12,585 bases of DNA from an uncultured Ruminococcus sp. Lineage in GTDB: Bacteria > Bacillota > Clostridia > Oscillospirales > Ruminococcaceae. The translations under genes were made by a program, and so were the position numbers. Numbering within the stretch: position 1 is the first letter of the stretch; the number at the start of each line of letters is the position of its first letter. The notes beneath the pieces were generated by a model. That model was not told the origin of the DNA. It made no database searches and was given only the letters and a program-made list of their open reading frames with translations. Below are positions 1-11,494 of this stretch, one piece after another. The DNA is taken from contig CAMWLD010000030.1 of NCBI GenBank assembly GCA_947175005.1, forward strand, positions 1 through 12,585. Direction: 5' to 3'.

Positions 1-31
1 TCGTTGGGTCGGTGAGGTGTATAAGAGACAG
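1..31 (+). other. Residual Illumina Nextera adapter (assembly artefact)
   Basis: Compared by eye with the 31 terminal bases of the Nextera read-2 adapter, 27 of 31 positions agree (differences at 5, 8, 13 and 16), and bases 17-31 (GTGTATAAGAGACAG) are identical to the transposase mosaic end. Read on the minus strand it is the familiar CTGTCTCTTATACAC read-through signature. It lies exactly at the contig tip and interrupts an open coding frame. It is sequencing-library DNA, not biology, and should be trimmed. Conclusions about bases 1-31 should be discarded. Confidence 0.93.
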
Positions 32-533
32 GAGGACTGTCAATGTCAACATATTCGTCCACAGGTTCAAACATTCCCGAAGCAATGCCCCTTGGTATAC
101 ACGTGGTGTCAAAAGGGAAAAAGTCTATCCCCTCGCCGCCCAAAACATAGGTGGAAAGGTCCGTCCAGCGCCCCTCCCAGGTGGTGGGAAAATACTCTAT
201 TTTTCCGCCGTACTTGCTCTCAAACATTTCCAGGGAGACCGATTTTGAGCCGCCCCTCGTGTCGGGGTTAAGGTCATAGTGGGCAAGCCATTTTACAGTC
301 TTGTTTTCCAGATCTTCATCTGTAAGCATGGAGTTCGCTGCCTCGGACACAGCCGCCTGCTGCTCCTCATTCAGCGCTTCGGTGTTTATGGCGACCGTTT
401 CACCGGGAGCGGCAGTATAAGCTGTTTCGGCAGGAGCGCTCTCCGCTGCGCCGCAGCCGCTCAAAGTCACCGCCAACAGAGCAGCGCTTGCAGCACGTAT
501 GGTGTAATTTTTTCCGTTAGATTTTCTTTTCAT
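32..533 (-). CDS. Extracellular solute-binding lipoprotein, N-terminal fragment (ABC sugar transporter type)
   Basis: This is the first 167 codons of a secreted lipoprotein; the rest lies beyond the contig end, where the frame runs into adapter. The N-terminus has basic residues (MKRKSNGK), a hydrophobic core and a lipobox LSGC with the lipidated cysteine at residue 27. A low-complexity Ala/Glu/Thr linker follows, as is usual after the lipid anchor. From about residue 80 the sequence (KWLAHYDLNP, then KYGGKIEYFPTTWEGRW, LGGEGIDFFPFD, GMFEPVDEYVD) has the pattern of family-1 extracellular solute-binding proteins, which capture sugars or oligosaccharides at the outer membrane face and hand them to an ABC permease. 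ATG at 533 is preceded by AAAAGGG at about 7-8 nt spacing. A near-consensus promoter lies 70-100 bp upstream. Substrate cannot be told. No permease genes are visible because the contig ends. Confidence 0.85.
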
Positions 534-603
534 ATAAATCAGCCCTTTTAATTTTTTAAACAATGCATTGTTGGCGTTTGCTTTGAAATTCGCCTTTAAC
601 AAA

Positions 604-632
604 AGTATAACTTATATTTAAGACAATGTCAA
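604..632 (-). promoter_or_regulatory. Sigma-A promoter of the solute-binding lipoprotein gene
   Basis: On the minus strand, TTGACA (627-632) and TATACT (604-609) are separated by exactly 17 bp. It points at the lipoprotein start at 533, giving a leader of roughly 60 nt. The -35 is a perfect match and the -10 matches five of six positions. Confidence 0.82.
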
Positions 633-707
633 TTTTAAATTTTGAAAGAACTTTTGATTTTTGAACATACAGTTTTTGAACAAATGACCGATTGCCGCGG
701 AATAAAC

Positions 708-755
708 AATAACCCCTGCGGACACAGCTTTACAGTTATGTCCGCAGGGGTTATT
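708..755 (-). terminator. Strong hairpin downstream of purB
   Basis: The arms 708-724 and 739-755 are perfectly complementary over 17 bp (core CCCCTGCGGACA), with a 14-nt loop. It lies 67 bp past the purB stop and before the lipoprotein promoter, so it probably ends purB transcription. The stem is self-complementary on both strands. The plus side is followed by TTTTC and the minus side by a weak T-rich TTGTTTATT. There is no long U run on either side, so termination efficiency is uncertain. Confidence 0.7.
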
Positions 756-821
756 TTCTGCAGTAAACTATGTCGGAAATTTTATACGGGCATTTGCCTT
801 AAATGCTGTTATGCTTTTTAC

Positions 822-2255
822 TCATACACTAAGCTCTGCCTGTTCACCCACGCAGTCGGGATATTTTTCCAGCAAAGGCTTAACGCATTCCGAGATAAAT
901 TCCTCAACCTGTTCGCCGCTTCTGCCCGTGTAATTTTCGGGAACAAGTATGTTTTCTATATCCTCACGCTTGAGGCCAAACATATCGTCCGCCAAAATGC
1001 GCTCAATAAGGTCATTGTCCAGCCCGTCCTCTTTTACCCTCTTGCCTGCCGCCATGGAATGCTCCCTTATCCGCTCATGAAGCTGCTGACGGTCGCCGCC
1101 TTTTTCTACTGCGTCCATCATAATGTTTTCGCTTGCCATAAAGGGCAGCTCTGCCATTACCCTGCGGCGGATTATCTTGGGATATACAACCAGTCCCGAG
1201 GTCACATTTATAAGAATATTAAGGATAGCGTCACAGGCAAGGAAGCCCTCGGCAACGGATATTCTCTTGTTTGCGCTGTCGTCAAGAGTGCGCTCGAACC
1301 ACTGAGTGCCCGCTGTAAAGGCAGGGTTAAGAGAATCTATCATAAGATAACGTGCAAGAGCCGTGATACGCTCGCAGCGCATGGGATTTCTCTTATAGGG
1401 CATAGCGGACGAGCCTATCTGATTTTTCTCAAAGGGCTCTTCCATTTCCTTGAAATTCTGTAGAATGCGAAGATCGTTGGCAAATTTCATAGCCGACTGG
1501 GCAATATTTGAGAGAGTATTCAGCACCATGGTATCGGCCTTTCTCGAATAGGTCTGTCCCGAAACGGGCACTACTCCCTCAAAGCCCATTTCCTCCGCAA
1601 TAAGCCGCTCCAGCTCCTTTACCTTGCCGCTGTCCCCGTGGAAAAGCTCCTTAAAGGAAGCCTGCGTGCCCGTTGTTCCCTTTGAGCCGAGAAGCTTTAA
1701 GCTCTTTATCCTGAACTCCAGCTCCTCCATATCCATAAGCAGCTCGTTTATCCAAAGGGACGCACGCTTGCCCACAGTGGTAAGCTGGGCGGGCTGCAAA
1801 TGGGTATAAGCAAGTGCAGGCTCGTCCTTCCACTTCATGGCAAAATCCGACAGCTGTGCAATGACCGTGACCATTTTCCTGCGGATAAGGTTAAGCCCCT
1901 CACGCATAATTATAACGTCGGTGTTGTCCCCCACATAGCAGGAGGTCGCCCCCAGGTGGATTATCCCCGCCGCCTTGGGGCAGCATTTTCCGTAAGTGTA
2001 TACATGCGCCATTACATCATGGCGGACTTGCTTTTCACGCTCCGCAGCGCACTCATAGTCGATATTGTCAATATTCGCCTCCAGCTCCGTCACCTGCTCC
2101 TCTGTAACAGGCAGACCCAGCTTCATTTCCGCCCTTGCCAGCGCCACCCACAGCCTGCGCCATGTGGTGAATTTCTTGTCCGCCGAAAAAATATACTGCA
2201 TTTCCTTGCTTGCATACCGTGTGCAGAAAGGGGATTCATAGCTGTTTGTGTTCAT
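822..2255 (-). CDS. purB: Adenylosuccinate lyase
   Basis: Cytoplasmic enzyme of the fumarase/aspartase superfamily. It acts twice in purine synthesis, releasing fumarate from SAICAR to give AICAR and from adenylosuccinate to give AMP. The 477-residue protein shows the superfamily signature GSSAMPYKRNP at residues 281-291 (flexible catalytic loop), THLQPAQ at about 151-157, LGATSCYVGDNTD at about 101-113, RHDVMAH at about 79, and TQASF at about 197. The N-terminus (FTTWRRLWVALARAE) is that of the longer, eukaryote-like class found in many clostridia. The frame is open upstream to 2348, but ATG at 2255 has AAAGGA about 9 nt upstream and matches the family's usual N-terminus, so it is chosen. 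It is monocistronic by its surroundings, with its own promoter at 2400-2428 and a hairpin after the stop. The leader contains a large palindromic element. No other pur gene is in the window. Confidence 0.96.
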   Translation of the reverse strand: MNTNSYESPFCTRYASKEMQYIFSADKKFTTWRRLWVALARAEMKLGLPVTEEQVTELEANIDNIDYECAAEREKQVRHDVMAHVYTYGKCCPKAAGIIHLGATSCYVGDNTDVIIMREGLNLIRRKMVTVIAQLSDFAMKWKDEPALAYTHLQPAQLTTVGKRASLWINELLMDMEELEFRIKSLKLLGSKGTTGTQASFKELFHGDSGKVKELERLIAEEMGFEGVVPVSGQTYSRKADTMVLNTLSNIAQSAMKFANDLRILQNFKEMEEPFEKNQIGSSAMPYKRNPMRCERITALARYLMIDSLNPAFTAGTQWFERTLDDSANKRISVAEGFLACDAILNILINVTSGLVVYPKIIRRRVMAELPFMASENIMMDAVEKGGDRQQLHERIREHSMAAGKRVKEDGLDNDLIERILADDMFGLKREDIENILVPENYTGRSGEQVEEFISECVKPLLEKYPDCVGEQAELSV

Positions 2256-2280
2256 TTTAACCAATCCTTTCGGAATTTTC

Positions 2281-2385
2281 TTATAGTAAACGACATTAGA
2301 AATTGGACAATGAAGCCTTGCAAAAATTTGCATATATGGTTTTTGCAAGAGCTGAATGTTGCAATTTCAATGTCGTTTACTATAA
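2281..2385. repeat. 105-nt near-palindromic element (MITE-like) in the purB leader
   Basis: Perfect 17-bp terminal inverted repeats, TTATAGTAAACGACATT (2281-2297) and its complement (2369-2385), are extended inward by GAAATTG/CAATTTC with one unpaired base. A second inner pair CTTGCAAAAA (2317-2326) / TTTTTGCAAG (2340-2349) flanks a short loop, and the stretch between is partly complementary. The whole element can fold into one long hairpin. It has no coding capacity. The termini contain TA at both ends, compatible with TA-targeting (Tc/mariner-like, IS630) non-autonomous elements; that assignment is inference. It lies between the purB promoter and its ribosome binding site, so it should be transcribed. 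Confidence 0.72.
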
Positions 2386-2399
2386 ATTTCACTTTTTTA

Positions 2400-2428
2400 A
2401 GTATACCACATATTTTTCCTTTTGTCAA
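2400..2428 (-). promoter_or_regulatory. Sigma-A promoter of purB
   Basis: On the minus strand, TTGACA (2423-2428) and TATACT (2400-2405) have a 17-bp spacer. Predicted transcription begins near 2393, giving a leader of about 140 nt that includes nearly the whole palindromic element. No purine riboswitch consensus is recognisable in that leader. Confidence 0.82.
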
Positions 2429-2438
2429 ATTCTTTGCC

Positions 2439-2480
2439 GTTAACGCAGTTAACACAATTGACGAAGTTAATGACGTTCGT
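2439..2480. repeat. Degenerate 9-nt tandem repeat upstream of the purB promoter
   Basis: Starting at 2439, 2448, 2457, 2466 and 2475 there are five 9-nt units: GTTAACGCA, GTTAACACA, ATTGACGAA, GTTAATGAC, GTTCGTCCA. The first two differ at one base and later units decay. The array straddles the stop codon of the adjacent cysteine-rich protein gene and ends about 10 bp before the purB -35. GTTAAC is itself palindromic. Confidence 0.45.
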
Positions 2481-2907
2481 CCAGATATTTTTCCGCCTCT
2501 TCCTCCGTCAGCCTCCGAACCGCAGTTTCGGGAAATTCCCTGTATTCGGAGGCTGTAAATACAGGGGACATTTTTTCGCAGGATTTATCCTTGTTTTTAT
2601 CCAGAAAAATTTTAAGCTCATCATTTCCCGGGAAAATTTTGTAGGAAATTCTGCCGCCCTTGCTTTTTATTTCATATATACCGCAGGATTTTTTCACGGT
2701 ATAGTCGGCAGTGCGCAGATAAAGCTTTGCAATATCGAGGCTTTTAAAGGGAAAATTCCACCGCTGTAAATTACGCTTAGGGTCATGTTCAATGCAAATA
2801 CATCTGCCGCAAGTTCCGCAAATATATTGGGTGTGATCTTTAAGGCACTGTGCAGGGCGAAGCAGGGGAGTTATCCTGTTGTTATCTGAATAGCATTCGG
2901 GACACAT
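2467..2907 (-). CDS. Small cysteine-rich (zinc-ribbon-like) protein of unknown function
   Basis: A 146-residue soluble protein. The first 41 residues hold two CxxC knuckles (C2-C5 and C30-C33) plus C21, C36, C38 and H41, an arrangement suited to binding one or two zinc ions. The remainder is basic and aromatic in the middle (KRNLQRWNFPFKSL, about 44-57), then charged, ending in a Glu-rich helix-like tail (RRLTEEEAEKYLDERH). I recognise no named family. The ribosome binding site GGAGGA (2915-2920) is 7 nt before ATG and lies in the 15-bp gap after the stop of the regulator gene upstream, so the two are almost certainly co-transcribed. That context suggests a partner or target of the regulator. 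No terminator is evident between its stop and the purB promoter. Confidence 0.82.
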   Translation of the reverse strand: MCPECYSDNNRITPLLRPAQCLKDHTQYICGTCGRCICIEHDPKRNLQRWNFPFKSLDIAKLYLRTADYTVKKSCGIYEIKSKGGRISYKIFPGNDELKIFLDKNKDKSCEKMSPVFTASEYREFPETAVRRLTEEEAEKYLDERH

Positions 2908-2922
2908 TTTTTAATCCTCCTT

Positions 2923-3732
2923 TTATGTATTGCCGCTTTCTGTTTTCCCCGAAACAAAGCAGACAAAGGCAATTATCAGAAATATGAACATTGTCAGCAT
3001 ATCCCACACATCAAAGAGCGGTTCGCCTATCAGCCTCGAAAGCAGCAGATTTACAGTAAATTCAAAGGGCACAGCCAGCAAAAACGATATGCCGAAAGCC
3101 GCCCTTTTGCGAGTTTTTCCCATTTTGATAAACACCGCCGCAATTATCCACATGAATATCAAGGACGCCGCCGCTGTCGCAGTCCCGATAACAAAGACCA
3201 TATGCACTCCCGTTAAAACCGACAGCATATACAGATAGGGGACAGTGAAAACACTTGCGCTGCCAAGGCTTGCCGTAAGTTTTCTTTTTCTCATAATAAG
3301 CCCCGGAAAGATTATTGCCCACGCATAAGCCATGGAGGCTATGGGTATGAGAGACCATGTCAAGCCCCCGGATATAGCAATATTGCAGATAATGCAGACG
3401 AACATACCTATGGCAATGGCTGCGGAAAAAATTACGGAAATGACAGTGTTTGCCGGAATCCTATTTTTTCTTTTAGGTGCAATAGGAGCTTCGACTGCTT
3501 TTTCGGGAGGAGGTGCAGCTTCACTTTCACAGCCGTTTAAAAGCTCGTCCGCCGTTATCCCCAGTATTTCGCATAGGGGGAGCATAAGAGAGGAATCCGG
3601 CAGGTTTAAACCCCTTTCCCATTTGGAAACAGCCCTGTCGGATACGTTCAGCATTTCCGCAAGCTGTGCCTGTGTAAGATTTTTTGCCTTCCGACGGCGT
3701 GCTATGAATTTCCCGATCACGACCTGATCCAT
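2923..3732 (-). CDS. XRE-family HTH regulator with C-terminal multi-spanning membrane domain
   Basis: A 269-residue protein. Residues 5-64 form a Cro/C1-type helix-turn-helix (IGKFIARRRKAKNLTQAQLA, then VSDRAVSKWERG, then the closing LCEILGITADELL). A Pro/Ala/Glu linker (about 70-92) leads to about six hydrophobic segments (about 96-260) with basic loops, so the DNA-binding head should sit in the cytoplasm tethered to the membrane. This architecture is common in Firmicutes; the signal sensed is generally unknown. Two starts are possible. ATG at 3732 has AAGGAG 8 nt upstream and the family's usual MDQ..IGKFI N-terminus. ATG at 3777 has GGAG 8 nt upstream and adds 15 residues. I prefer 3732, with 3777 a real alternative. 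It is the first gene of a pair with the cysteine-rich protein 15 bp downstream. Confidence 0.88.
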   Translation of the reverse strand: MDQVVIGKFIARRRKAKNLTQAQLAEMLNVSDRAVSKWERGLNLPDSSLMLPLCEILGITADELLNGCESEAAPPPEKAVEAPIAPKRKNRIPANTVISVIFSAAIAIGMFVCIICNIAISGGLTWSLIPIASMAYAWAIIFPGLIMRKRKLTASLGSASVFTVPYLYMLSVLTGVHMVFVIGTATAAASLIFMWIIAAVFIKMGKTRKRAAFGISFLLAVPFEFTVNLLLSRLIGEPLFDVWDMLTMFIFLIIAFVCFVSGKTESGNT

Positions 3733-3773
3733 ACTATCCGCTCCTTCCGGCGCTTTTTGATTTTCCCATAGTA

Positions 3774-3837
3774 TCATTGCAAATTCTCCTTTTCATATAT
3801 GAACTTACTTTCTTAAATCATACATCATTTGCAATGA
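3774..3837. promoter_or_regulatory. Promoter and inverted repeat upstream of the membrane-bound HTH regulator
   Basis: An 11-bp inverted repeat, TCATTGCAAAT (3774-3784) and ATTTGCAATGA (3827-3837), flanks the probable promoter region. On the minus strand a good -10 (TATGAT) lies 17 bp from a weak -35 (TTTCAA) whose spacer contains one repeat arm. The repeat could be an operator for autoregulation, which is common for XRE proteins. The binding role is inference. Confidence 0.45.
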
Positions 3838-3943
3838 AATTGAAACAAACCTGCGGTTGAGTGCCGAAAATCAACCGAGGATTGTGAGGCCAAGAGAGGC
3901 TTTGACCATTGACTTGTTTATAGGTAGATGTTTATAGGCAGAA

Positions 3944-3974
3944 ATGTTTCCGCCTTATATAACAGGGGAAACAT
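3944..3974 (-). terminator. Probable terminator of the AGCS symporter gene
   Basis: ATGTTTCC (3944-3951) pairs with GGAAACAT (3967-3974). The stem is extended by CC/GG across one bulged base, closing a loop of about 10 nt (TTATATAACA). On the minus strand it starts 23 bp past the symporter stop and is followed by TTTCT. The U tract is short. The rest of the gap between 3733 and 3996 holds only the regulator's upstream region and a weak 7-bp hairpin (CGGTTGA/TCAACCG). Confidence 0.5.
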
Positions 3975-3996
3975 CTCCGTCAGAGTTTAAAGCCGT

Positions 3997-5436
3997 TCAC
4001 TCGGTGATTTCGCCGTTACCCAGTCTCTTGAAATAATCCTTTGTATCCCTCGCCACAACGCTGCTTAGTGCAAAAAGGGCTACAATATTGGGCAGCGCCA
4101 TAAGCCCGTTAAAAATATCCGCAATGGTCCATACCGCCGACACCGTCATGTAAGGGCCTATGAAAACCGCAGCAATGTAAAGTATGCGGTAGACAGTCAC
4201 AGCCGTTTTGTTTTTTCCGCTGAGGTATTCGAGGCAGCGCTCGCCGTAATAATCCCAGCCTAAAATCGTGGTGAACGCAAAGAACACCAGACACAACATC
4301 AGAATAAACGCCGCCGCACCCGAGGGCAGGAAGTAAAGTCCCTTTGAGAATGCGTCGGTGGTCACCTGCACTCCCTCAAGGCTTGCGTCCGACCATGAGC
4401 CCATCATTACTATGGAAAGCCCCGTCATGGTGCAGATAACGATAGTGTCGATAAACGTCCCCGTCATGGAAATAAGTCCCTGTCTTACAGGCTCTTTTGT
4501 CTTTGCCGCCGCCGCCGCAATGGGAGCGGAGCCAAGCCCCGATTCATTGGAGAATATCCCTCGGGAAACGCCGCTTTTCATGGATATCATGACCGAGGCA
4601 AGCGCACCGCCCGCTATGGGCTTTATCCCGAATGCTCCCCCGATTATATCCCCCACAGCAGCGGGTATTCTCGTAATGTTTGCAATAAGCAGCACCAGCA
4701 CCGCCGCAATGTAAAGTATCGCCATAAAGGGCACGATTATTTCCGCAACACCGCTTATCCGCTTGATTCCGCCGATTATGACCAGCCCTGCGCAAATTGC
4801 CAGTACAAAGGCGGAGATGACCGTTACCACCGAGTAGCTGTTTCCGAAAAGCATGATAGTGTTTTCCCCGTTAGGGTCGAAAAATCCCGTCACCGCCGAG
4901 GAAATGCCGTTTACCTGGGAGAATGTGCCTATGCCCATAAGTCCCACGCACGCCCCGAAAAACGCAAACACCTTTGCCAGCCATTTCCACTTTTTGCCCA
5001 TGCCGTTTTCGATGTAATAGAAAGGCCCTCCCAGCACGTGCCCGTCACTGTCAACAGTGCGGTATTTTACCGCAAGGAAACCTTCCGAATATTTTGTTGC
5101 CATGCCGAAGAACGCAGCTATCCACATCCAAAAAAGCGCCCCGGGGCCTCCCGCCAAAATTCCTATCGCCGTTGCAACACCCACGATATTTCCCGTGCCT
5201 ATTGTGGCGGAAAGGGCTGTGCAAAGGGAAGCAAAGCCGCTGACTTCTCCCTTTATCTCCCCCTCAACCTCGCTTTTTTCCTCCTTGAAAAGCAGCCGCA
5301 GCGCCCGCGGCAGATGCCTCACCTGTATAAAGCCCGTGCGCATCGTCAGCAGCAGTCCCGCCGAAAGTATAAGCACTATCAGGGGCACGCCCCATACATA
5401 GCCGTCGATTTTTTCAAGAATTTCGTCAAAGGTCAC
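3997..5436 (-). CDS. AGCS-family sodium:alanine/glycine symporter
   Basis: Integral membrane carrier that takes up alanine or glycine with sodium (alanine/glycine:cation symporter family, AlsT/AgcS/DagA type). The protein has about 479 residues and 10-11 hydrophobic segments. Family hallmarks are an N-terminal amphipathic DEILEKIDGYVWG then a hydrophobic helix; the conserved TALSATIGTGNIVGVATAI at about 74-92; GGPGALFWMW...FFGMATKYSEG at about 96-120; SGVSRGIFSNESGLGSAPIA in the middle; and FTTILGWDYYGERCLEYL near the end. Start choice: ATG codons at 5478 and 5445 lack a well-placed ribosome binding site, whereas GTG at 5436 has GGAG exactly 9 nt upstream and matches the family N-terminus, so GTG is chosen. 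The substrate could be either amino acid. The upstream 168-bp gap has a hairpin but no promoter I can defend, so its transcription start is unclear. Confidence 0.94.
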   Translation of the reverse strand: MTFDEILEKIDGYVWGVPLIVLILSAGLLLTMRTGFIQVRHLPRALRLLFKEEKSEVEGEIKGEVSGFASLCTALSATIGTGNIVGVATAIGILAGGPGALFWMWIAAFFGMATKYSEGFLAVKYRTVDSDGHVLGGPFYYIENGMGKKWKWLAKVFAFFGACVGLMGIGTFSQVNGISSAVTGFFDPNGENTIMLFGNSYSVVTVISAFVLAICAGLVIIGGIKRISGVAEIIVPFMAILYIAAVLVLLIANITRIPAAVGDIIGGAFGIKPIAGGALASVMISMKSGVSRGIFSNESGLGSAPIAAAAAKTKEPVRQGLISMTGTFIDTIVICTMTGLSIVMMGSWSDASLEGVQVTTDAFSKGLYFLPSGAAAFILMLCLVFFAFTTILGWDYYGERCLEYLSGKNKTAVTVYRILYIAAVFIGPYMTVSAVWTIADIFNGLMALPNIVALFALSSVVARDTKDYFKRLGNGEITE

Positions 5437-5504
5437 ATTTATCATCTCCGTAAATATTTTTTTGGGGGTCCTGTACATTCGCCGTGAAATTTTTCTCGGA
5501 AACA

Positions 5505-5534
5505 GACAAGGCAGGTATATATTGCCTGCCTGTC
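5505..5534 (-). terminator. Hairpin after the dynamin operon
   Basis: GACA-A-GGCAGG (5505-5515) pairs with CCTGCC-TGTC (5525-5534), a 10-bp stem with one bulged A and a 9-nt AT-rich loop. It lies about 70 bp past the stop of the second GTPase gene and before the symporter. The minus strand has an A-rich run before the stem and TGTTT after it. The plus side is followed by ATTTTAATTTTTTATAA, which is the better terminator tail although no plus-strand gene enters here. It may work in both directions. Confidence 0.5.
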
Positions 5535-5604
5535 ATTTTAATTTTTTATAATAATTATCCGTTTTGGAAAAGCATATGAGGTAAGTAAAATTTCTAACCT
5601 CTTA

Positions 5605-7341
5605 TCAGTACTGCTTCAGCACATTCACAGCCCCGATAACGATCTCCGAAGCCCGCTCCAGATTGCGGCAGGTCTGTTCGGTGTCGCTGCTCGACCTTGC
5701 CATTTCCATAGCCTGGGCAACGGTCTCTCTGCCCGCCTCCACCTGGTTTTTGTAAATATCGTCCAGCTGCGCCTGGGCAAATTCCACGAAATTGTTATAG
5801 CAGTCCTTGAGGTCCTTGATAGCGCTGTTGCGGATATCGTCGTAATTTTCCAAAGCCGAGTCGATTATCTCCGACTGCTGCTTTTTCTTCAGAATATTCC
5901 CGAAGAAAGGCATGGTAGCCGAGGGGAAGCCCATTACACGGTCAGCCCCTTGACTGGCAGCTTCCTTTATCTTGTCCGCCACAAAGGTGTTCACATTCAC
6001 CGATTCGCTGCACGAGATACGGACTCCCGCAAGGTTGACTATCCCCAGCTTTCTCGAAAGCTCCGCGCCCATGTCGTTGATGATGTCATTGAGCCGCTGC
6101 TGATGAATCTCCAGGCATTTTCTGTATGCCTCGCCAACCTTGTCCATAAGGTAGGAGTAGAAGTGTCTCTCCACGTCCTCGTCATTGGCAGTGGTGCGGC
6201 AGGCAAGAATATCCTCACGGAGCTTGGTGAAGAACTCATACATCCAGTGCTCCGCCTCCTGCTGCATTTCGGTAATGGAGAGTATGATCTTGGGCTTTTT
6301 GCTGTCCAGCGCCGCAGCCAGTGTGGTGCATTCCCGCTCAAAGTCCTCCGAAAGCTTGTCAAGCTTCTGCCTGTCCATTTTCATCATGTCGCTTATCATG
6401 TTGAGCCTTGTAAGAGTGTCTGTCAGCATAAGCCGCAGCATGGAGAATACCCTGTGAGTGCGGATAGTGTCCTTCTGCACGATTATTTCACGGGACAAAG
6501 CCAGCTCGAATTTTAAGAACTGGTTCTCGTAATAATCCTGGAAGCCCTTTATATCAGGGCGGTTAAGTCCTATCTTGCGGCGGTACTCGTCAATGCCGCT
6601 TATGCCGTAGACTTCAGCCCCGGGGATTATCTGTGAGCATTTTTCCTTTATGCGGTCAACTACCCTTTCAATATCCTCCATGGTGTTCATGGCGTCGATC
6701 ATATTTACCAGCACAAACACCTTGCTGAAATTCTGGGGCACGATATTTCCCGCAATGAAATACTGCTCGCTTTCGGAAAAGGGAGAGAGCGCCGACGCCA
6801 CATAGATAACAGCGTCCGCCTTTATAAGGAAATCCTTTACCTGATTGTCAAGGTCGTCAAGGTCGGAAAGACCCGGAGTGTCCACTATCTGAATTTCTTT
6901 AAGTATGGGAGCGTCGCTGCGAACATCAATGTATTCCAGCTCCCCCGGGAAAAAGTCCAGCAGACCGTAAAGCCGTTCTCTGCTTAGATCGTCCTGCGTT
7001 AAAGTCACACGCTTGCCGTTTTTGAGCACCGCCTCCACAGAGGGAGTTTCCCCGTAGGAAATGCAGTTTACCGTAAAGGTCTCGGGGGCTACGTTCACAG
7101 GGGCAATGGAACGCCCTAAAATAGCGTTGATTATGGTGCTCTTGCCCCGCTTGAAGTCACCTATGACCATAAGGTAAAAGGGTTCGTTCATTTTCTTGCC
7201 GATTATCCCGTCCCATTTGGACATTCTTTCCACTACCTCGTCGCCAAGTATAGCGGAAAGCTCGGGGTCGGTTATAAGCCTTGTAAGCTCTCCTCGGACA
7301 AATGCTATGTCCTCGGAGGCGTTGTCGTAATTTTTACTCAT
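5605..7341 (-). CDS. Dynamin-like GTPase, soluble-looking partner
   Basis: A 578-residue dynamin-superfamily protein. The GTPase domain has P-loop GDFKRGKST at 61-69, a switch-I region with conserved Pro/Thr (NVAPETFTVNCISYG, 83-97), G3 DTPG at 154-157 and G4 NMID at 213-216. Downstream (about 280-578) is almost all predicted helix (stalk and bundle type) rich in Glu/Lys/Gln/Met. A small apolar stretch MGFPSATMPFFGNILKKK at about 464-481 could act as a membrane-touching loop; there is no clear transmembrane segment. Bacterial relatives hydrolyse GTP to assemble on and remodel or fuse membranes. ATG is preceded by AAAGGAGG at 9 nt, located beside the stop of the M48-like gene 15 bp upstream, so translation of the two is probably linked. 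It is the last gene of the operon. It differs from the larger GTPase in length and lacks its membrane segment, which suits a hetero-oligomeric pair. Specific function unknown. Confidence 0.9.
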   Translation of the reverse strand: MSKNYDNASEDIAFVRGELTRLITDPELSAILGDEVVERMSKWDGIIGKKMNEPFYLMVIGDFKRGKSTIINAILGRSIAPVNVAPETFTVNCISYGETPSVEAVLKNGKRVTLTQDDLSRERLYGLLDFFPGELEYIDVRSDAPILKEIQIVDTPGLSDLDDLDNQVKDFLIKADAVIYVASALSPFSESEQYFIAGNIVPQNFSKVFVLVNMIDAMNTMEDIERVVDRIKEKCSQIIPGAEVYGISGIDEYRRKIGLNRPDIKGFQDYYENQFLKFELALSREIIVQKDTIRTHRVFSMLRLMLTDTLTRLNMISDMMKMDRQKLDKLSEDFERECTTLAAALDSKKPKIILSITEMQQEAEHWMYEFFTKLREDILACRTTANDEDVERHFYSYLMDKVGEAYRKCLEIHQQRLNDIINDMGAELSRKLGIVNLAGVRISCSESVNVNTFVADKIKEAASQGADRVMGFPSATMPFFGNILKKKQQSEIIDSALENYDDIRNSAIKDLKDCYNNFVEFAQAQLDDIYKNQVEAGRETVAQAMEMARSSSDTEQTCRNLERASEIVIGAVNVLKQY

Positions 7342-7356
7342 TACATCGATCCTCCT

Positions 7357-8334
7357 TTATGATCCATAGCTTCCGTCCGTATCTGCGATAATGTCGCAGC
7401 GGATCTCCAGCGCCTGCTTGTTGCCCACATGGCTTTGAGGCTTTTCCAGATCGGGACGCCATATGTACAGTATCTCGCAGCCTATAAATTCCATTCCCGC
7501 CACAAGCCGCCGCTCGTCCGAGGAACACTGGGGGCTTATTTTAAGGTCGCGCACAGGGGTAACGTGCAGCGCCTCATAATGAGTGGTGATCTCCTCCAGA
7601 TCAATGTTGGGGTTCGGGTTGCCCATGGAATCGGGAATGCCCTTTTTGCGCACGCTTGCGAAGATCTCCGCAAATTTATCCGGGCTGTCCAGGCAGATTA
7701 TACCCGCCCTGTCCGCGGTTATGTCTCCTGCTAACAGCCATTTGTTAAGGCTGTAGTTAAGCTCTCTGATATTGTTTTTGGTGCTCTCGGCGCTGCTTTG
7801 GGTTATATCGCCCCTGCTTATGCCGGGATAGGTAAAGGCATAGTTAAAGGCACAGTGGCGGTTTTGCAGCCTGCCGCATTCGCAGCCTATCAGAAAGCAC
7901 AGCTCGTCATGGGTAAATTCCTCGGCAACGTCCGCCGTCATGATTATGCAAGGCTCGATCCCGTCCCCGGAAAGTGAGCTTATTTCGGGTATTTCTCCCG
8001 CTTTTCTCACCAGTACCACGGGAATGCTTATCTGAAGCCGTTCGCTGCATTTTTTTGCAGCCTCGTACGCCTTGGCGTATTTCATTGACGAGGCGCTGTC
8101 GCTGGACTGGAAAAATCTCTTGAATTTATTGGGAATGTCATTTCCCGTAATGGTCTTGTATAATCTCGACCACCCCGAAAAGCCGCCTATTTTCTGCCTC
8201 ATGGCAAAGTCGGCGTCAAAGGCGTAATCAAGCACGCCTCCGACCACGTGATCCTGAAAGGAACGCGTCCTCGCAACCAGGTAATCGGAAAATGATGTAT
8301 TTATATCCATCAGCGGATTAAAAGAATTTGTCAC
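7357..8334 (-). CDS. M48-peptidase-like protein with degraded zinc site
   Basis: A 325-residue protein with the shape of an M48 (HtpX/OMA1-type) metallopeptidase domain. DELCFLIGCECGRLQNRH at about 143-160 lines up with the family's helix ..EL.F.IGHELGHI.N.H. WLLAGDITADRAGI at about 199-212 matches the E..ADRAG third-ligand helix. LHVTPVRDLKI at about 257-267 resembles the late HP....R...L motif. The ligands have changed: HExxH reads CECGR (residues 151-155) and the third-ligand Glu appears to be Asp (204). It is therefore probably catalytically inactive, possibly a scaffold or regulator. No signal peptide or clear transmembrane segment. Start: an ATG at 8430 would translate through a heptamer repeat array, whereas GTG at 8334 has AAAGGTGG 7 nt upstream, so GTG is chosen. 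MDIN at 8310 is another option. It sits between two dynamin-like genes, 129 bp after one and 15 bp before the other. Confidence 0.78.
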   Translation of the reverse strand: MTNSFNPLMDINTSFSDYLVARTRSFQDHVVGGVLDYAFDADFAMRQKIGGFSGWSRLYKTITGNDIPNKFKRFFQSSDSASSMKYAKAYEAAKKCSERLQISIPVVLVRKAGEIPEISSLSGDGIEPCIIMTADVAEEFTHDELCFLIGCECGRLQNRHCAFNYAFTYPGISRGDITQSSAESTKNNIRELNYSLNKWLLAGDITADRAGIICLDSPDKFAEIFASVRKKGIPDSMGNPNPNIDLEEITTHYEALHVTPVRDLKISPQCSSDERRLVAGMEFIGCEILYIWRPDLEKPQSHVGNKQALEIRCDIIADTDGSYGS

Positions 8335-8352
8335 AATATAACCACCTTTACT

Positions 8353-8437
8353 ACCGGAAGCAGGAAGCAAGAAGCAAGAGGCAAGAAGCTCTGTTGCTGT
8401 ACTGCTTTCCTGCTCATTTAAAACCTGCACTGCCGGT
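8353..8437. repeat. Heptamer-repeat element A, between the large GTPase and M48-like genes
   Basis: From 8357 the plus strand reads GAAGCAG, GAAGCAA, GAAGCAA, GAGGCAA, GAAGC: 4.7 tandem 7-nt units. TACTGCTTTCCTGCT (8400-8414) follows and is complementary to part of the array (AGCAGGAAGCA, with one bulge). Outer sequences ACCGG (8353-8357) and CCGGT (8433-8437) can also pair, as can CAGG/CCTG just inside, so the region can fold. It occupies most of the only sizeable gap in the operon and shares its layout with the element near 10627. Confidence 0.7.
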
Positions 8438-8463
8438 TATCGTTATAAATATTCTCTGATAAC

Positions 8464-10533
8464 TTATGCCGACTGTTCTTCCTCATCTTCATCGGAAAGA
8501 ATATCGGTCAGAGCCTTGTGCAGATTATAAGTGCCTGCCAGCATTTCGCCCACATTTTCCGCAATGGACTGGAGGCGTATTTTTTCATTGTCCGACATGG
8601 TTTTCTTCTGCTGTTTTTTCTCGTTGAGGTCGTCAAGGGTTTTCTGTGTGTCTTTAAGGATAATTTCGGTTTCCTCTTCAATTTGAGTTTTAAGTCCCGA
8701 GAATGAATTAAATACCTGCTGACGAACTGATTCGGTAAAGTCGGAATTTATCTTCATTTCATGGAACTGCTTTTTAACGTTTGCTTTCATGCTTGCCTTG
8801 TACTTGTCAATTCGTTCCTGAACCAGGAATTTGTCCACTGCAAACTTGCCCGTAAACGTGCCCGCAAAGCCCGCCAGAGCCATAATGCACAGCGAAGCAG
8901 GGGACAGCAGCACGCCGCCCGCAACCGTTGTAACAAGCAGGAAAGATGTAGCAAGCCATGTGGTAAGTCCTGTAAGTCCGCCAAGGAGTGCACCTTTAAC
9001 GCCCGCTTCTCTGAAACCGATGAACAGGCCGCCTATACCGCCCGTGCCGATAACAGAGCCTATAATGCTGTCCGCCACGCCGCCGTTGCGGGTGTTCTGG
9101 GCAGGCACCGAGAAAAGCTCCTGAATGCGCGCCAGCGACTCGAAGAACTCGTCCTCGAAGGACTGTAATCTCACAGCCTCTTCCTGGAGTCCCACGTTAA
9201 TATCCTTCTGGATCTGCTCGCAGATAAGCTGCGCTTTGTTTTCGATATTTTCCTTTATTTTTTGAGTCATACGCTCGTAAACGCTCTTTAGCTTTTCGCG
9301 TTTGAGATCCTCCGCACCCATCTGATACTCGTCAATTACCTGCTCTGCGGTCTCCTCGATCTTTACCCAGTACTCGTCAAGGATAGGCTGGAGCTGCTCA
9401 AACACCTTGTTTGCGGCATTGTTTATCCGAACGAATTCCTCACGCTTTTTGGTGCGTATCTCCTCGATCTCCTCAATAGCAAGCTGATACTTCTCCATAA
9501 ATTCGTCGGTTTCCATAACAAGAGCGTTTTCGTGGAGAACTATGGAGTTGATTATTTCCGAGCCGGAGCTGATTATCTTGTTGGCGAGAATTTGCAGGGT
9601 TATAGAGCCTCTTTCCTTTGTAAGCATGGTCTCCAGCACATTCTCAAACCTGGGGAAATTGCTGTCCGCCAGCATTTCGGAATCTCCCGATTCCTTTGCC
9701 ATAAGGGCTTTCTTGGCGTATACCCCGATAACCTTGGGCTTGCCTATCTTCCTCTTGTAAACGGCGAATTCCTTTGACCCCTCGCCCATTACCTTTTTGG
9801 CTTTGTCCATAACGTAGGAGCAAATACGCCTCTCCACGGTCTCGACTATCCTGTCCTCATCCTCCTTGGAGAATGTGCCGAAGCAGTTTACCGCAAAGAT
9901 GATACGCCCCAGATCGCTGGTGAGCATCTTATTTTCCAAAAATTCCTTTTCAAACTGTGAAAAAGGCGAATTGGCGCTTATAACGAACACCGCAGCGTCT
10001 ATCTCGGGCAGAATTGACATGGTGACGTTTGTCATCTGCTCATCATCGTTAAGCCCCGGAGTGTCAATGATATCCACATGATTTTTGCAGAAAGCAGTGT
10101 CATAGTAAACGGTGGCTTCCTTGACCGTCTCCGCCTTTTTTTCCGATTCATAGGAAAGCTTTGTGACATAGTCCGAAAGCTTGTTTATATCCACCCTTTC
10201 GGAATTTCCGTCCTTATACTCCACGACAACATAAGGCTCTTCGCTGTATGTAACCCTGTTAAGGGTGGCAGTGGCGGGCAGTACATCCGCAGGCAGTACC
10301 TCCTGCCCCAAAAGGGCGTTTATCAGCGTACTTTTTCCCCTTTTGAACTCGCCCACAATGGCAACCTCAAAGTGATTCTCCACAGCCTTTTCCACAACGT
10401 CGCCTATGGATTTGGCTGTGTTTTCCAAATTGAGTGAGCTTGCGTATTCTTTAAGCTGCCCCAATGATTCCGCCAGATCGTTGACCGTTTCACGGAATGA
10501 GGCATAACTGCCGAAATCGTAAGTTTGCTCCAT
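8464..10533 (-). CDS. Dynamin-like GTPase with hydrophobic membrane segment
   Basis: A 689-residue dynamin-superfamily protein. P-loop GEFKRGKST lies at 61-69, switch I around VLPADVLPATATLNRVTY (79-96), and G3 DTPGLNDDE at 157-165. The usual guanine-specificity NKxD position reads NCFG (about 216-219), so the expected Asp is missing. Long, highly charged helices (about 340-480) form the stalk. A Gly-rich hydrophobic region at about 485-566 (IIGSVIGTGGIGGLFIGF, then LLGGLTGLTTWLATSFLLVT, then ASLCIMALAGFAGTFTG) looks like a membrane-inserting paddle or hairpin. The C-terminus returns to helix and ends in an acidic tail. ATG at 10533 has GGAGGAG 8 nt upstream; the frame extends to an ATG at 10569, but that would place this ribosome binding site inside the gene. 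First gene of the three-gene operon, with a long leader from a promoter near 10765-10794. Confidence 0.9.
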   Translation of the reverse strand: MEQTYDFGSYASFRETVNDLAESLGQLKEYASSLNLENTAKSIGDVVEKAVENHFEVAIVGEFKRGKSTLINALLGQEVLPADVLPATATLNRVTYSEEPYVVVEYKDGNSERVDINKLSDYVTKLSYESEKKAETVKEATVYYDTAFCKNHVDIIDTPGLNDDEQMTNVTMSILPEIDAAVFVISANSPFSQFEKEFLENKMLTSDLGRIIFAVNCFGTFSKEDEDRIVETVERRICSYVMDKAKKVMGEGSKEFAVYKRKIGKPKVIGVYAKKALMAKESGDSEMLADSNFPRFENVLETMLTKERGSITLQILANKIISSGSEIINSIVLHENALVMETDEFMEKYQLAIEEIEEIRTKKREEFVRINNAANKVFEQLQPILDEYWVKIEETAEQVIDEYQMGAEDLKREKLKSVYERMTQKIKENIENKAQLICEQIQKDINVGLQEEAVRLQSFEDEFFESLARIQELFSVPAQNTRNGGVADSIIGSVIGTGGIGGLFIGFREAGVKGALLGGLTGLTTWLATSFLLVTTVAGGVLLSPASLCIMALAGFAGTFTGKFAVDKFLVQERIDKYKASMKANVKKQFHEMKINSDFTESVRQQVFNSFSGLKTQIEEETEIILKDTQKTLDDLNEKKQQKKTMSDNEKIRLQSIAENVGEMLAGTYNLHKALTDILSDEDEEEQSA

Positions 10534-10626
10534 TAAATTAACTCCTCCCATTAGAATTTTATATATCAAAAAACGTATATGTTCTTGTGAATGTTAGTTT
10601 GTAGGTTGATGTATGTTTGCTGCCGA

Positions 10627-10665
10627 GAGGCAAGAAGCAGGAGGCAAGAGATTTACTGCCCTGCT
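10627..10665. repeat. Heptamer-repeat element B in the dynamin operon leader
   Basis: The plus strand reads GAGGCAA, GAAGCAG, GAGGCAA, GAG from 10627, then TACTGCCCTGCT (10654-10665), matching element A (near 8357-8414) in both the 7-nt unit and the trailing TACTGC...CCTGCT arm. The trailing arm can pair with the array (GCAGG/CCTGC and GGCA/TGCC with a short bulge). Copy number differs (3.4 units here, 4.7 there), as expected for a dispersed family that varies by slippage. Confidence 0.68.
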
Positions 10666-10710
10666 GTTTGCTCTTTATGTTGACTTTGTTAGCATATTAT
10701 TTATGCCGAA

Positions 10711-10729
10711 TTAACGTACTGTACATTAA
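10711..10729. promoter_or_regulatory. Operator-like palindrome in the dynamin operon leader
   Basis: TTAACGTACTGTACATTAA is a 19-bp palindrome around a central T with a single mismatched pair. It lies about 30-50 nt downstream of the predicted transcription start of the dynamin operon, a position where a bound repressor could block elongation. The regulator is unknown; a role is inferred from symmetry and placement only. Confidence 0.4.
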
Positions 10730-10764
10730 TGTATCTGTGTTTGCATAAAATTTCACTTATTATC

Positions 10765-10794
10765 ATTATAACACAAAATTGTCAAATTTGTCAA
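10765..10794 (-). promoter_or_regulatory. Sigma-A promoter of the dynamin operon
   Basis: On the minus strand, TTGACA (10789-10794) and TATAAT (10765-10770) are both perfect consensus hexamers with an 18-bp spacer. A second TTGACA overlaps the spacer but is too close to the -10 to serve. Predicted start near 10758 gives a leader of about 225 nt before the first GTPase. Confidence 0.78.
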
Positions 10795-10946: not shown

Positions 10947-10975
10947 TTGACATTCGGTGGAAAATGCGGTATAAT
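10947..10975 (+). promoter_or_regulatory. Perfect-consensus sigma-A promoter for the plus-strand genes
   Basis: TTGACA (10947-10952), a 17-bp spacer and TATAAT (10970-10975): both hexamers and the spacing are ideal. Transcription should start near 10982, about 100 nt before the small acidic protein gene. It is back to back with the dynamin operon promoter, about 150 bp away. Confidence 0.87.
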
Positions 10976-11080
10976 ATTTTTGTATGACAAAGGGCTTTGA
11001 CGGCGGTGCTTAACAAGTCAGGGAAGTGCTTTGGCGGAGCAGCGGAGCAAGATTACGATGAATTTGCGGAGGAATTTTAT

Positions 11081-11494
11081 ATGGCGTATAAATATTATAA
11101 ATTTGATGATCGGACAGAGATGTATGAATTGTTTGAAAAATGGCTTGATAAAGCTTTGGCACAACCTTTTCCCGAGGGGCTTGCGGCGGTTTCGTTCAAT
11201 ATATATGAGGATGTAGGTGACGGGTGCTGGTCAATGGATTTTGTAGGAACAGACCGTTTTGACCCGGACGACGACGGTGACTGGGCTTGTTTTGAGATAA
11301 CGACCTTTGACACCCGTGACGAGCCTTTCGGCTGGATAACGCACAAGGAATGGGAGGATATAGAGAAAGAGGCTATAGATATGGTTATGAAATATCTTGA
11401 ATGCGGGAAATACGCAGAGAAGATCAAAGAATGTAAGGGTGTGGGCTTGGGACATGTGAACGGTGACTTGAACATACTGTATAAAAAAGAATGA
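11081..11494 (+). CDS. Small acidic protein of unknown function
   Basis: A 137-residue protein, rich in Asp, Glu and aromatic residues. It begins with an amphipathic helix region (YELFEKWLDKALAQ), followed by a strand-like AAVSFNIYEDVGDGCWSMDFVGT, an acidic patch FDPDDDGDWACFE (about 64-76), and a basic C-terminal helix (KYLECGKYAEKIKECKGVG). There is no signal peptide or membrane segment. I do not recognise the family. The acidic, compact, Trp-rich character resembles bacterial immunity-type or small cytosolic binding proteins, but this is only an impression. Start: GGAGG (11068-11072) lies 8 nt before ATG at 11081. The same frame is open back to a TTG at 10997, which has no ribosome binding site. 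It is driven by an ideal promoter, so it may be well expressed. The lipid kinase gene follows 99 bp later and may share its transcript. Confidence 0.78.
   Translation: MAYKYYKFDDRTEMYELFEKWLDKALAQPFPEGLAAVSFNIYEDVGDGCWSMDFVGTDRFDPDDDGDWACFEITTFDTRDEPFGWITHKEWEDIEKEAIDMVMKYLECGKYAEKIKECKGVGLGHVNGDLNILYKKE

What the first reader, a model, noticed from the sequence alone, without database searches (positions are those of the whole stretch)
5605..10794. Three-gene module: two unequal dynamin-like GTPases with an M48-fold protein between them
Seen: a promoter, then a membrane-segment dynamin-like GTPase (689 aa), an M48-like protein, and a shorter soluble-looking dynamin-like GTPase (578 aa), with the last two 15 bp apart. 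Known: paired bacterial dynamins act as hetero-oligomers (LeoA/LeoBC, the Eleos defence system; DynA-type proteins protect membranes during phage attack), and in mitochondria an M48 peptidase (OMA1) processes a dynamin (OPA1). Inference: this may be a membrane-stress or antiphage module in which a peptidase-fold protein senses or scaffolds the dynamin pair. The combination is not one I recognise as a named system.
Basis: partly seen in the sequence, partly recalled or inferred. Interest (0 to 1): 0.8.

Follow-up and report, generated by a model that had tools for sequence, protein, structure and literature searches.

The report
Dynamin pair with dead M48 protease
Gut Clostridia keep a fixed three-gene operon in which two membrane-shaping dynamin-like proteins flank a protein that is built like a protease but has lost its metal-binding active site, while rarer relatives of the same operon still carry the intact protease.

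Summary
The trio is real: GTPase A (8464-10533), M48-like protein (7357-8334), GTPase B (5605-7341), all minus strand, behind a perfect-consensus promoter. In 80 loci the M48-like gene has GTPase A before it in 77 and GTPase B after it in 76; the gaps are contig ends. In 148 family genomes the same 20 carry M48 and GTPase B. Both GTPases are BDLP/mitofusin-type dynamins; A has the hydrophobic paddle.

The M48-like protein keeps the M48 fold but has lost all four zinc ligands. Three complete trios from other lineages keep all four. The loss is one change on the tree, nested in the intact family. The dead form is under purifying selection and in 19 of 20 species of the genus; intact trios are rare (1 of 11, 1 of 38, 1 of 16).

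Inferred: an accessory dynamin-protease module was taken over once as a core membrane-maintenance machine, the protease kept as non-catalytic partner. Flanking genes show no defence island. My searches found no paper on the combination.

The parts
10765..10794 (-). promoter TTGACA-18-TATAAT with TG before the second hexamer
   Evidence: 12 of 12 consensus match; consensus match only
8464..10533 (-). GTPase A: 689 aa BDLP-type dynamin-like GTPase with hydrophobic paddle
   Evidence: Dynamin_N 2.9e-31; profile of 12 family members matches BDLP1 2j68 over positions 29-672, 9.7e-57
9877..9891 (-). G4 motif of GTPase A, changed to VNCFG
   Evidence: VNCFG in 79 of 89 GTPase A rows; VNKID, VNRID, LTGID in the three trios with intact M48; 7 rows not parsed
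8905..9069 (-). hydrophobic paddle of GTPase A, residues 489-543
   Evidence: two hydrophobic segments by Kyte-Doolittle; 89 of 89 GTPase A rows have at least one such segment, GTPase B 4 of 89
8356..8390 (.). dispersed short repeat in the A to M48 spacer
   Evidence: 145 matches in the genome with up to 3 mismatches (overlaps included), 0 for the reversed pattern
7357..8334 (-). M48-like pseudopeptidase, 325 aa
7870..7884 (-). CECGR in place of HExxH (both His ligands lost, Glu kept)
7723..7725 (-). Asp203 in place of the third zinc ligand Glu
   Evidence: E in all 128 intact rows and in 1 of 208 degenerate rows
7525..7527 (-). Cys269 in place of the His of the HPX4R active-site plug
   Evidence: H in 128 of 128 intact rows, 0 of 208 degenerate rows; role of this His from PMC7950410 (passages)
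5605..7341 (-). GTPase B: 578 aa dynamin-like GTPase without hydrophobic paddle
5509..5531 (.). stem-loop after the trio, terminator-like when read on the plus strand
   Evidence: 9 pairs; 7 such sites found against 6.1 expected by shuffling, so weak

Best explanation
A three-gene membrane-remodelling operon. Shown by sequence: GTPase A is a BDLP-type dynamin with a membrane paddle, GTPase B a mitofusin/BDLP-fold dynamin without one, and the gene between them encodes an M48-fold protein that has lost all four zinc ligands but is kept under purifying selection and inherited as a unit with the two GTPases. Inferred: A and B form a heterotypic oligomer, as the Campylobacter DLP1/DLP2 pair does, with A binding the membrane and B acting as adaptor; the M48 protein binds one or both of them and regulates or scaffolds the assembly without cutting. 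In the ancestral form, which survives as a rare module with an intact site, the M48 protein probably cut or trimmed a partner. The dead-protease form was fixed once in the Ruminococcus-type lineage and became a core membrane-maintenance or membrane-stress machine.
For: Order and strand: 80 genome-contig loci, GTPase A upstream in 77 and GTPase B downstream in 76 (a 131-aa piece of B also in L026); every partner found is on the same strand; the seven missing ones fall off contig ends with 2-397 bp of room. Median gaps, from longest-ORF starts, 35 bp (A to M48) and -1 bp (M48 to B) over 92 loci, four of which repeat one of the 80. Family sample of 148 genomes: trio-type M48 in 20 and strong GTPase B in the same 20, 18 of them with the site lost and 2 intact. 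Site loss: 208 of 336 aligned M48 rows have lost His1 and the plug His, 207 the Glu ligand; 128 keep all four. One change on a tree of 106 rows, SH-aLRT 100, nested in the intact family; the same split in masked M48, GTPase A and GTPase B trees at 100, 99, 100. Distances of A, B and M48 over 80 loci correlate at r 0.81-0.94. dN/dS of M48 0.04-0.07. Core status: 19 of 20 species, 8 of 8 good genomes. Intact form: 1 of 11, 1 of 38, 1 of 16. Folds. YceG next to it in ten loci.
Against: No physical contact between the three proteins was tested; complexes could not be predicted here. Co-operonic genes need not form one complex. The core-versus-rare contrast rests on one genus for the dead form and one genus plus two families for the intact form, each chosen because its centre had the trio. 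Only three complete trios with an intact site were seen in context (L096, L097, L104); 117 of the 128 intact rows came from the protein database without context, and 8 of the other 11 are not in trios. The trio is absent from most of the family (128 of 148 genomes). In single cases the order is loosened or a frame is broken: 992 bp and a 189-aa ORF between M48 and B in L080, M48 in two ORFs in L032, GTPase A in two in L049; two of the 20 family rows list one TAA inside the M48 match (G491, G509). YceG adjacency is limited to one subclade, and five loci of that range with over 8 kb of room lack it. PADLOC's LeoA and LeoBC models match both GTPases weakly, so a defence origin is not excluded. 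The tree programme warned of long branches.
Confidence: 0.5

Rival explanations
1. Antiphage system related to Eleos (LeoA/LeoBC) or acting like DynA: the dynamin pair delays lysis or blocks infection and the M48 protein senses the attack.
For: PADLOC LeoA and LeoBC models match the window GTPases (best 1.5e-19 for A, 2.2e-11 for B) and those of the intact trios (best 2.7e-26). Intact trios are sporadic, and one (L096) lies beside a kinase-NACHT protein. DynA delays phage lysis in B. subtilis (PMC8844932, passages).
Against: The dead form is core in its genus (19 of 20), under purifying selection and mostly flanked by ordinary genes; among 122 flanking proteins 39 PADLOC families matched at 1e-10, and each of the 25 shown matched a single protein, most of them PD-T4-6 models (a kinase family, recalled). 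Viral contigs and phage records hold one short and one full match.
Confidence: 0.2
2. The M48-like protein still acts, using a changed metal site (Cys, His, Asp, Cys) or a cysteine chemistry.
For: The catalytic Glu is kept in 335 of 336 rows; 67 of 208 degenerate rows combine His2 with Cys at the plug position, and Cys at both changed positions occurs together in 104 rows.
Against: The position of His1 tolerates C, S, R, A, G and I, the plug position many residues, and His2 is Arg in 112 rows including the window. No set of ligands is common to the clade. The NA substrate-edge motif is also replaced (its role is recalled).
Confidence: 0.08
3. The M48-like gene has its own function (for example as a chaperone-like protein) and is only co-transcribed with a dynamin pair.
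For: Physical association is untested. Generic M48 proteins were found without a dynamin neighbour in the stretches examined.
Against: Trio-type M48 and GTPase B coincide in 20 of 20 genomes of the family sample; gene order is constant and M48 and B usually touch; the association holds in the distant intact relatives and, in another order, in L118, L172 and L180.
Confidence: 0.14
4. A secretion or membrane-vesicle system like LeoABC of E. coli.
For: leoA and leoB knockouts cut vesicle release by roughly half (PMC4159319, passages); same class of paired dynamins.
Against: LeoA was located in the periplasm of a double-membrane cell, while these are Bacillota; no secretion family stands out among the recurrent neighbours shown.
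Confidence: 0.08

Closest known systems
Cj-DLP1/Cj-DLP2 pair of Campylobacter jejuni (PDB 5owv, 5oxf; PMC6104087, abstract and passages)
   Different: no M48-fold gene described beside the pair in the passages read
LeoA/LeoBC, Eleos (PMC4159319, passages; the Eleos name is recalled)
   Same: paired bacterial dynamins; PADLOC models match
   Different: GTPase B scores 21 bits against the LeoA cut-off 325 and GTPase A has no NF041922 row; extra M48-fold gene
BDLP1 of Nostoc (PDB 2j68, 2j69; organism recalled)
   Different: a single dynamin in the solved structure; its genomic neighbours were not examined
DynA of Bacillus subtilis (PMC8844932, passages)
   Same: two dynamin units in one Bacillota system; membrane protection
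   Different: fused in one chain; NCBIfam DynA model scores 42.7 (B) and 47.7 (A) against cut-off 1600
M48 peptidases BepA and HtpX (PMC7950410, passages)
   Different: all four zinc ligands replaced
OMA1 and OPA1 of mitochondria (recalled)
   Same: an M48 peptidase paired with a dynamin
   Different: the window protein cannot be expected to cut; homology of OMA1 to this family not tested
Metallopeptidase pseudoenzymes (review PMC11266112, passages)
   Same: inactive peptidase kept for binding
   Different: the term M48 does not occur in that review's main text

Membership tests
Peptidase family M48 | M48 fold | tested here: met
Peptidase family M48 | HExxH, distal Glu and HPX4R zinc site (as listed in PMC7950410) | tested here: not met
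   window CECGR, Asp203, Cys269; so a non-peptidase homologue
Bacterial dynamin-like proteins | Dynamin_N domain with P-loop and G3 | tested here: met
   both over the Pfam cut-off; P-loop and DTPG in 89 of 89 GTPase B rows, 84 and 85 of 89 GTPase A rows, the remaining 5 and 4 not matched by the search
Bacterial dynamin-like proteins | canonical G4 (N/T)KxD | tested here: not met
   GTPase A VNCFG, GTPase B mostly VNMID (61 of 89); G4 varies among dynamins (recalled), so this is not taken to exclude membership
Bacterial dynamin-like proteins | helical neck/trunk | tested here: met
   A by profile over BDLP1, positions 29-672; B by model
Eleos (LeoA/LeoBC) | LeoA family score | tested here: not met
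   NF041922 21 bits against cut-off 325
Eleos (LeoA/LeoBC) | PADLOC LeoA and LeoBC matches | tested here: inconclusive
   weak to moderate E-values, PADLOC cut-offs not shown
Eleos (LeoA/LeoBC) | antiphage activity | not testable with these tools
   needs plating assays
OMA1/OPA1-type regulated dynamin | peptidase with an intact site beside the dynamin | tested here: not met
   site lost in the window clade; intact in L096, L097, L104 and the related proteins
OMA1/OPA1-type regulated dynamin | cleavage of the dynamin | not testable with these tools
   needs an enzyme assay

The most novel reading that the evidence does not exclude
An ancient bacterial counterpart of protease-gated dynamins: a patchy accessory operon in Clostridia (dynamin A, active M48 peptidase, dynamin B, in two of three cases with a third dynamin and in all three with zinc-ribbon proteins upstream) was taken over once in the Ruminococcus-type lineage; the protease became a pseudoprotease and the G4 motif of dynamin A changed in the same clade, turning an accessory module into a core machine for membrane maintenance in which a dead protease gates dynamin assembly.
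Probability: 0.35. Interest if true: 0.82.

Novelty: new variant of a known kind. Interest (0 to 1): 0.7.

Why it matters
Bacterial dynamins usually come in pairs and their regulation is poorly known. Here is a third partner that is as constant as the pair itself and that exists in both a catalytically equipped and a dead version. The natural contrast allows a direct test of whether peptidases gate bacterial dynamins, as OMA1 does for OPA1 in mitochondria (recalled), and how a protease is converted into a regulator. Two of the 80 loci with the dead form bear strain names without a metagenome label (Ruminococcus sp. YE71 and Marseille-P6503, loci L063 and L067) and may be available for study.

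Tried and rejected
Defence island: 122 of 137 listed flanking proteins were scanned (15 left out: 12 from the intact loci, most of them scanned later in A8, and three more); 39 PADLOC families at 1e-10, the 25 shown matched by one protein each; of 123 Pfam families the 25 shown are mostly metabolic or transport families. The 28 flanking proteins of intact loci gave LeoA/LeoBC (the third dynamins among them), kinase and other hits. No random-region control was run.

Phage or plasmid carriage: no relative of the dead form in viral contigs; one short match (43 residues) of the intact form; one unverified faecal 'Bacteriophage sp.' record holds a whole trio beside an integrase-like ORF (those ORFs named by eye). 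Plasmid hits are distant.

tmRNA integration for L104: a tmRNA lies about 0.8 kb past the trio, but no second copy of 14 bases or more of its 3' end was found in the 20 kb.

Conserved Cys as a replacement metal site across the clade: rejected, the positions vary. L106 was dropped as a complete intact trio: its contig joins a glycosidase-like ORF (by eye) to a half M48 gene. L006, L062, L081, L083, L108 and L177 dropped out of the flank listing because the greedy gene caller did not keep a trio-type M48 ORF; they are counted except L108, a generic M48. Two of the 80 loci gave no full-length M48 row for the site tally (78 used).

Papers: searches found none on a dynamin-M48 operon in the held library (open-licence PubMed Central only). 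Searches were for TelA.

The Foldseek 'pdb' search was not accepted in two tries; only the VIA second look was used.
Full report
What is there. The window carries, on the minus strand, three adjacent genes: GTPase A (8464-10533, 689 aa), an M48-like protein (7357-8334, 325 aa, GTG start) and GTPase B (5605-7341, 578 aa). A promoter with 12 of 12 consensus bases stands at 10794-10765. The window's genome is a fragmented assembly of 2.47 Mb in 394 contigs, 83% complete; the window is its whole contig 30. Other window genes include a sodium/alanine symporter and an HTH protein on the minus strand and a lipid kinase on the plus strand.

The zinc site. In BepA zinc is held by two His of HExxH, a Glu and the His of HPX4R (PMC7950410, passages). 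The window has Cys150, Arg154, Asp203 and Cys269 at these places. I aligned 336 sequences: the window, 237 proteins listed, and 98 read from loci; some loci and proteins are the same gene. 128 keep all four ligands; the other 208 have all lost His1 and the plug His, keep Glu in one row, and keep His2 in 90. Nothing lies between the two states. The 128 intact rows are 117 database proteins without context and 11 from loci: three complete trios, three of the M48-dynamin order and five generic M48s. The 120 listed relatives of the window (of 181 found) are all degenerate; 117 of 117 listed relatives of the L097 protein that were long enough (of 302 found) are intact; 0 of 78 genome-contig loci keep His1. 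The active-site Glu remains in 335 of 336. The NA motif beside the active site of the intact rows is also replaced.

Conservation of the trio. Of 80 loci kept from 87 found with the M48 profile in species-representative genomes, 77 have GTPase A upstream and 76 GTPase B downstream (77 with a short piece in L026), all on the same strand; the missing partners lie beyond contig ends (2-397 bp left). Over 92 loci, four of them repeats of the same contigs (L110, L111, L112, L176), the median gaps are 35 and -1 bp; five loci have a gap over 150 bp, and L080 has a 189-aa ORF between M48 and B. Frames are broken in single cases: M48 in two ORFs in L032, GTPase A in two in L049. Anchoring on GTPase B gives the same answer: in 148 genomes of the family, 20 have a strong GTPase B (over 500 bits) and the same 20 have the trio-type M48; a 21st M48 hit (G484, 52 bits) is a generic M48. 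Of these 20, two have the intact site (G440, G431) and 18 the lost one. Two rows list one TAA inside the M48 match (G491, G509). In 391 genomes of the class the trio was seen in five (contexts).

Intact relatives. L096, L097 and L104, from three other lineages, have the same order A, M48, B with HECGH, a Glu ligand and HPX4R or HPX4K. L097 and L104 also have a third dynamin and zinc-ribbon proteins upstream; L096 has a zinc-ribbon protein upstream and a kinase-NACHT protein downstream. A more distant arrangement, intact M48 followed by one or two dynamin-like GTPases, occurs in L118, L172 and L180.

History. On a tree of 106 M48 rows rooted on eight M48s from outside the trios, the degenerate rows form one group (SH-aLRT 100, stem 1.26 changes per site) inside the intact family, next to L104 and two database proteins. 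With active-site columns masked, the split stays (100), and GTPase A and GTPase B trees of the same 31 loci show it too (99, 100), with only three intact loci in those trees. The programme warned of long branches (L105, and the stem meeting L177). Distances over 80 loci correlate: A-B 0.94, B-M48 0.93, A-M48 0.81. In the same clade GTPase A reads VNCFG at G4 (79 of 89 rows; the three intact loci read VNKID, VNRID, LTGID; seven rows not parsed).

Selection and spread. Pairwise dN/dS of the M48-like gene is 0.04-0.07 where dS is below 1.2, against 0.02-0.03 for the GTPases: two to three times looser than its partners, but not decaying. The dead form is in 19 of 20 species of the genus (8 of 8 good genomes; the miss is 69% complete). 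The intact form is in 1 of 11 species of G440's genus, 1 of 38 genomes of G016's family and 1 of 16 of G363's family (at E limits of 1e-40, 1e-70 and 1e-70). Fisher test for 19/20 against 1/11: 2.6e-6; each group was chosen through a member that has the trio, so each count includes its own centre.

Context and function. Flanks of the dead form are mostly ordinary genes that differ between lineages (the lists are capped). In ten loci of one subclade (L025, L027-L032, L037, L038, L041) YceG follows on the same strand, 81 to about 190 bp after GTPase B except in L028 (751 bp); TelA follows YceG in nine, and L032 ends before it could be read in full. Five other loci of that range (L033, L034, L039, L040, L043) have over 8 kb of room without it. 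In B. subtilis yceG and yceH lie in an operon controlled by sigma W, B and M (PMC3498285, passages); that yceH is a TelA homologue is recalled. This is the only positional hint to function, and it points to envelope stress. Defence models give no cluster, though LeoA/LeoBC models match the GTPases.

Verdict. Inferred, not shown: physical complex, regulation of dynamin assembly, membrane maintenance, and peptidase action of the intact form on a dynamin. The searches behind the statement on prior work are listed under Tried and rejected.

Noticed in passing
window 1-31: The contig starts with a stretch ending GTATAAGAGACAG, like a Nextera transposon adapter (recalled), so the first bases are probably not genomic.
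   Followed up: no
window 8357-8386 and 10627-10649: Short repeat built of 7-base GARGCAR-like units; 145 matches (up to 3 mismatches, overlapping ones included) in the genome, none for the reversed control. It lengthens the A to M48 spacer.
   Followed up: partly
window 10947-10975: A second perfect consensus promoter on the plus strand, divergent from that of the trio, before the 165-aa ORF 10997-11494 that matches no Pfam or NCBIfam family.
   Followed up: no
L029 5399-8229 and nine more loci: YceG_bac gene after GTPase B, followed by TelA in nine of the ten.
   Followed up: partly
L097 5459-7805, L104 4233-7185: Third dynamin and zinc-ribbon proteins upstream of intact trios; possibly part of the ancestral module.
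   Followed up: partly
L096 8344-12135: 1264-aa protein kinase plus NACHT protein downstream of an intact trio.
   Followed up: no
L118, L172, L180: Intact M48 followed by dynamin-like GTPases; in L118 and L172 its C-terminus looks like a zinc ribbon (by eye).
   Followed up: partly
L106 1-2621: Contig that joins a glycosidase-like ORF (by eye) to the second half of an intact M48 gene: truncation or misassembly.
   Followed up: partly
L212 (MT836781.1) 175-8678: Record named Bacteriophage sp. that holds a whole trio next to integrase-like, HTH and MazF-like ORFs (by eye); probably a bacterial contig with an inserted element.
   Followed up: partly
L080 10943-11934: A 189-aa ORF lies between M48 and GTPase B in this lineage.
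   Followed up: no
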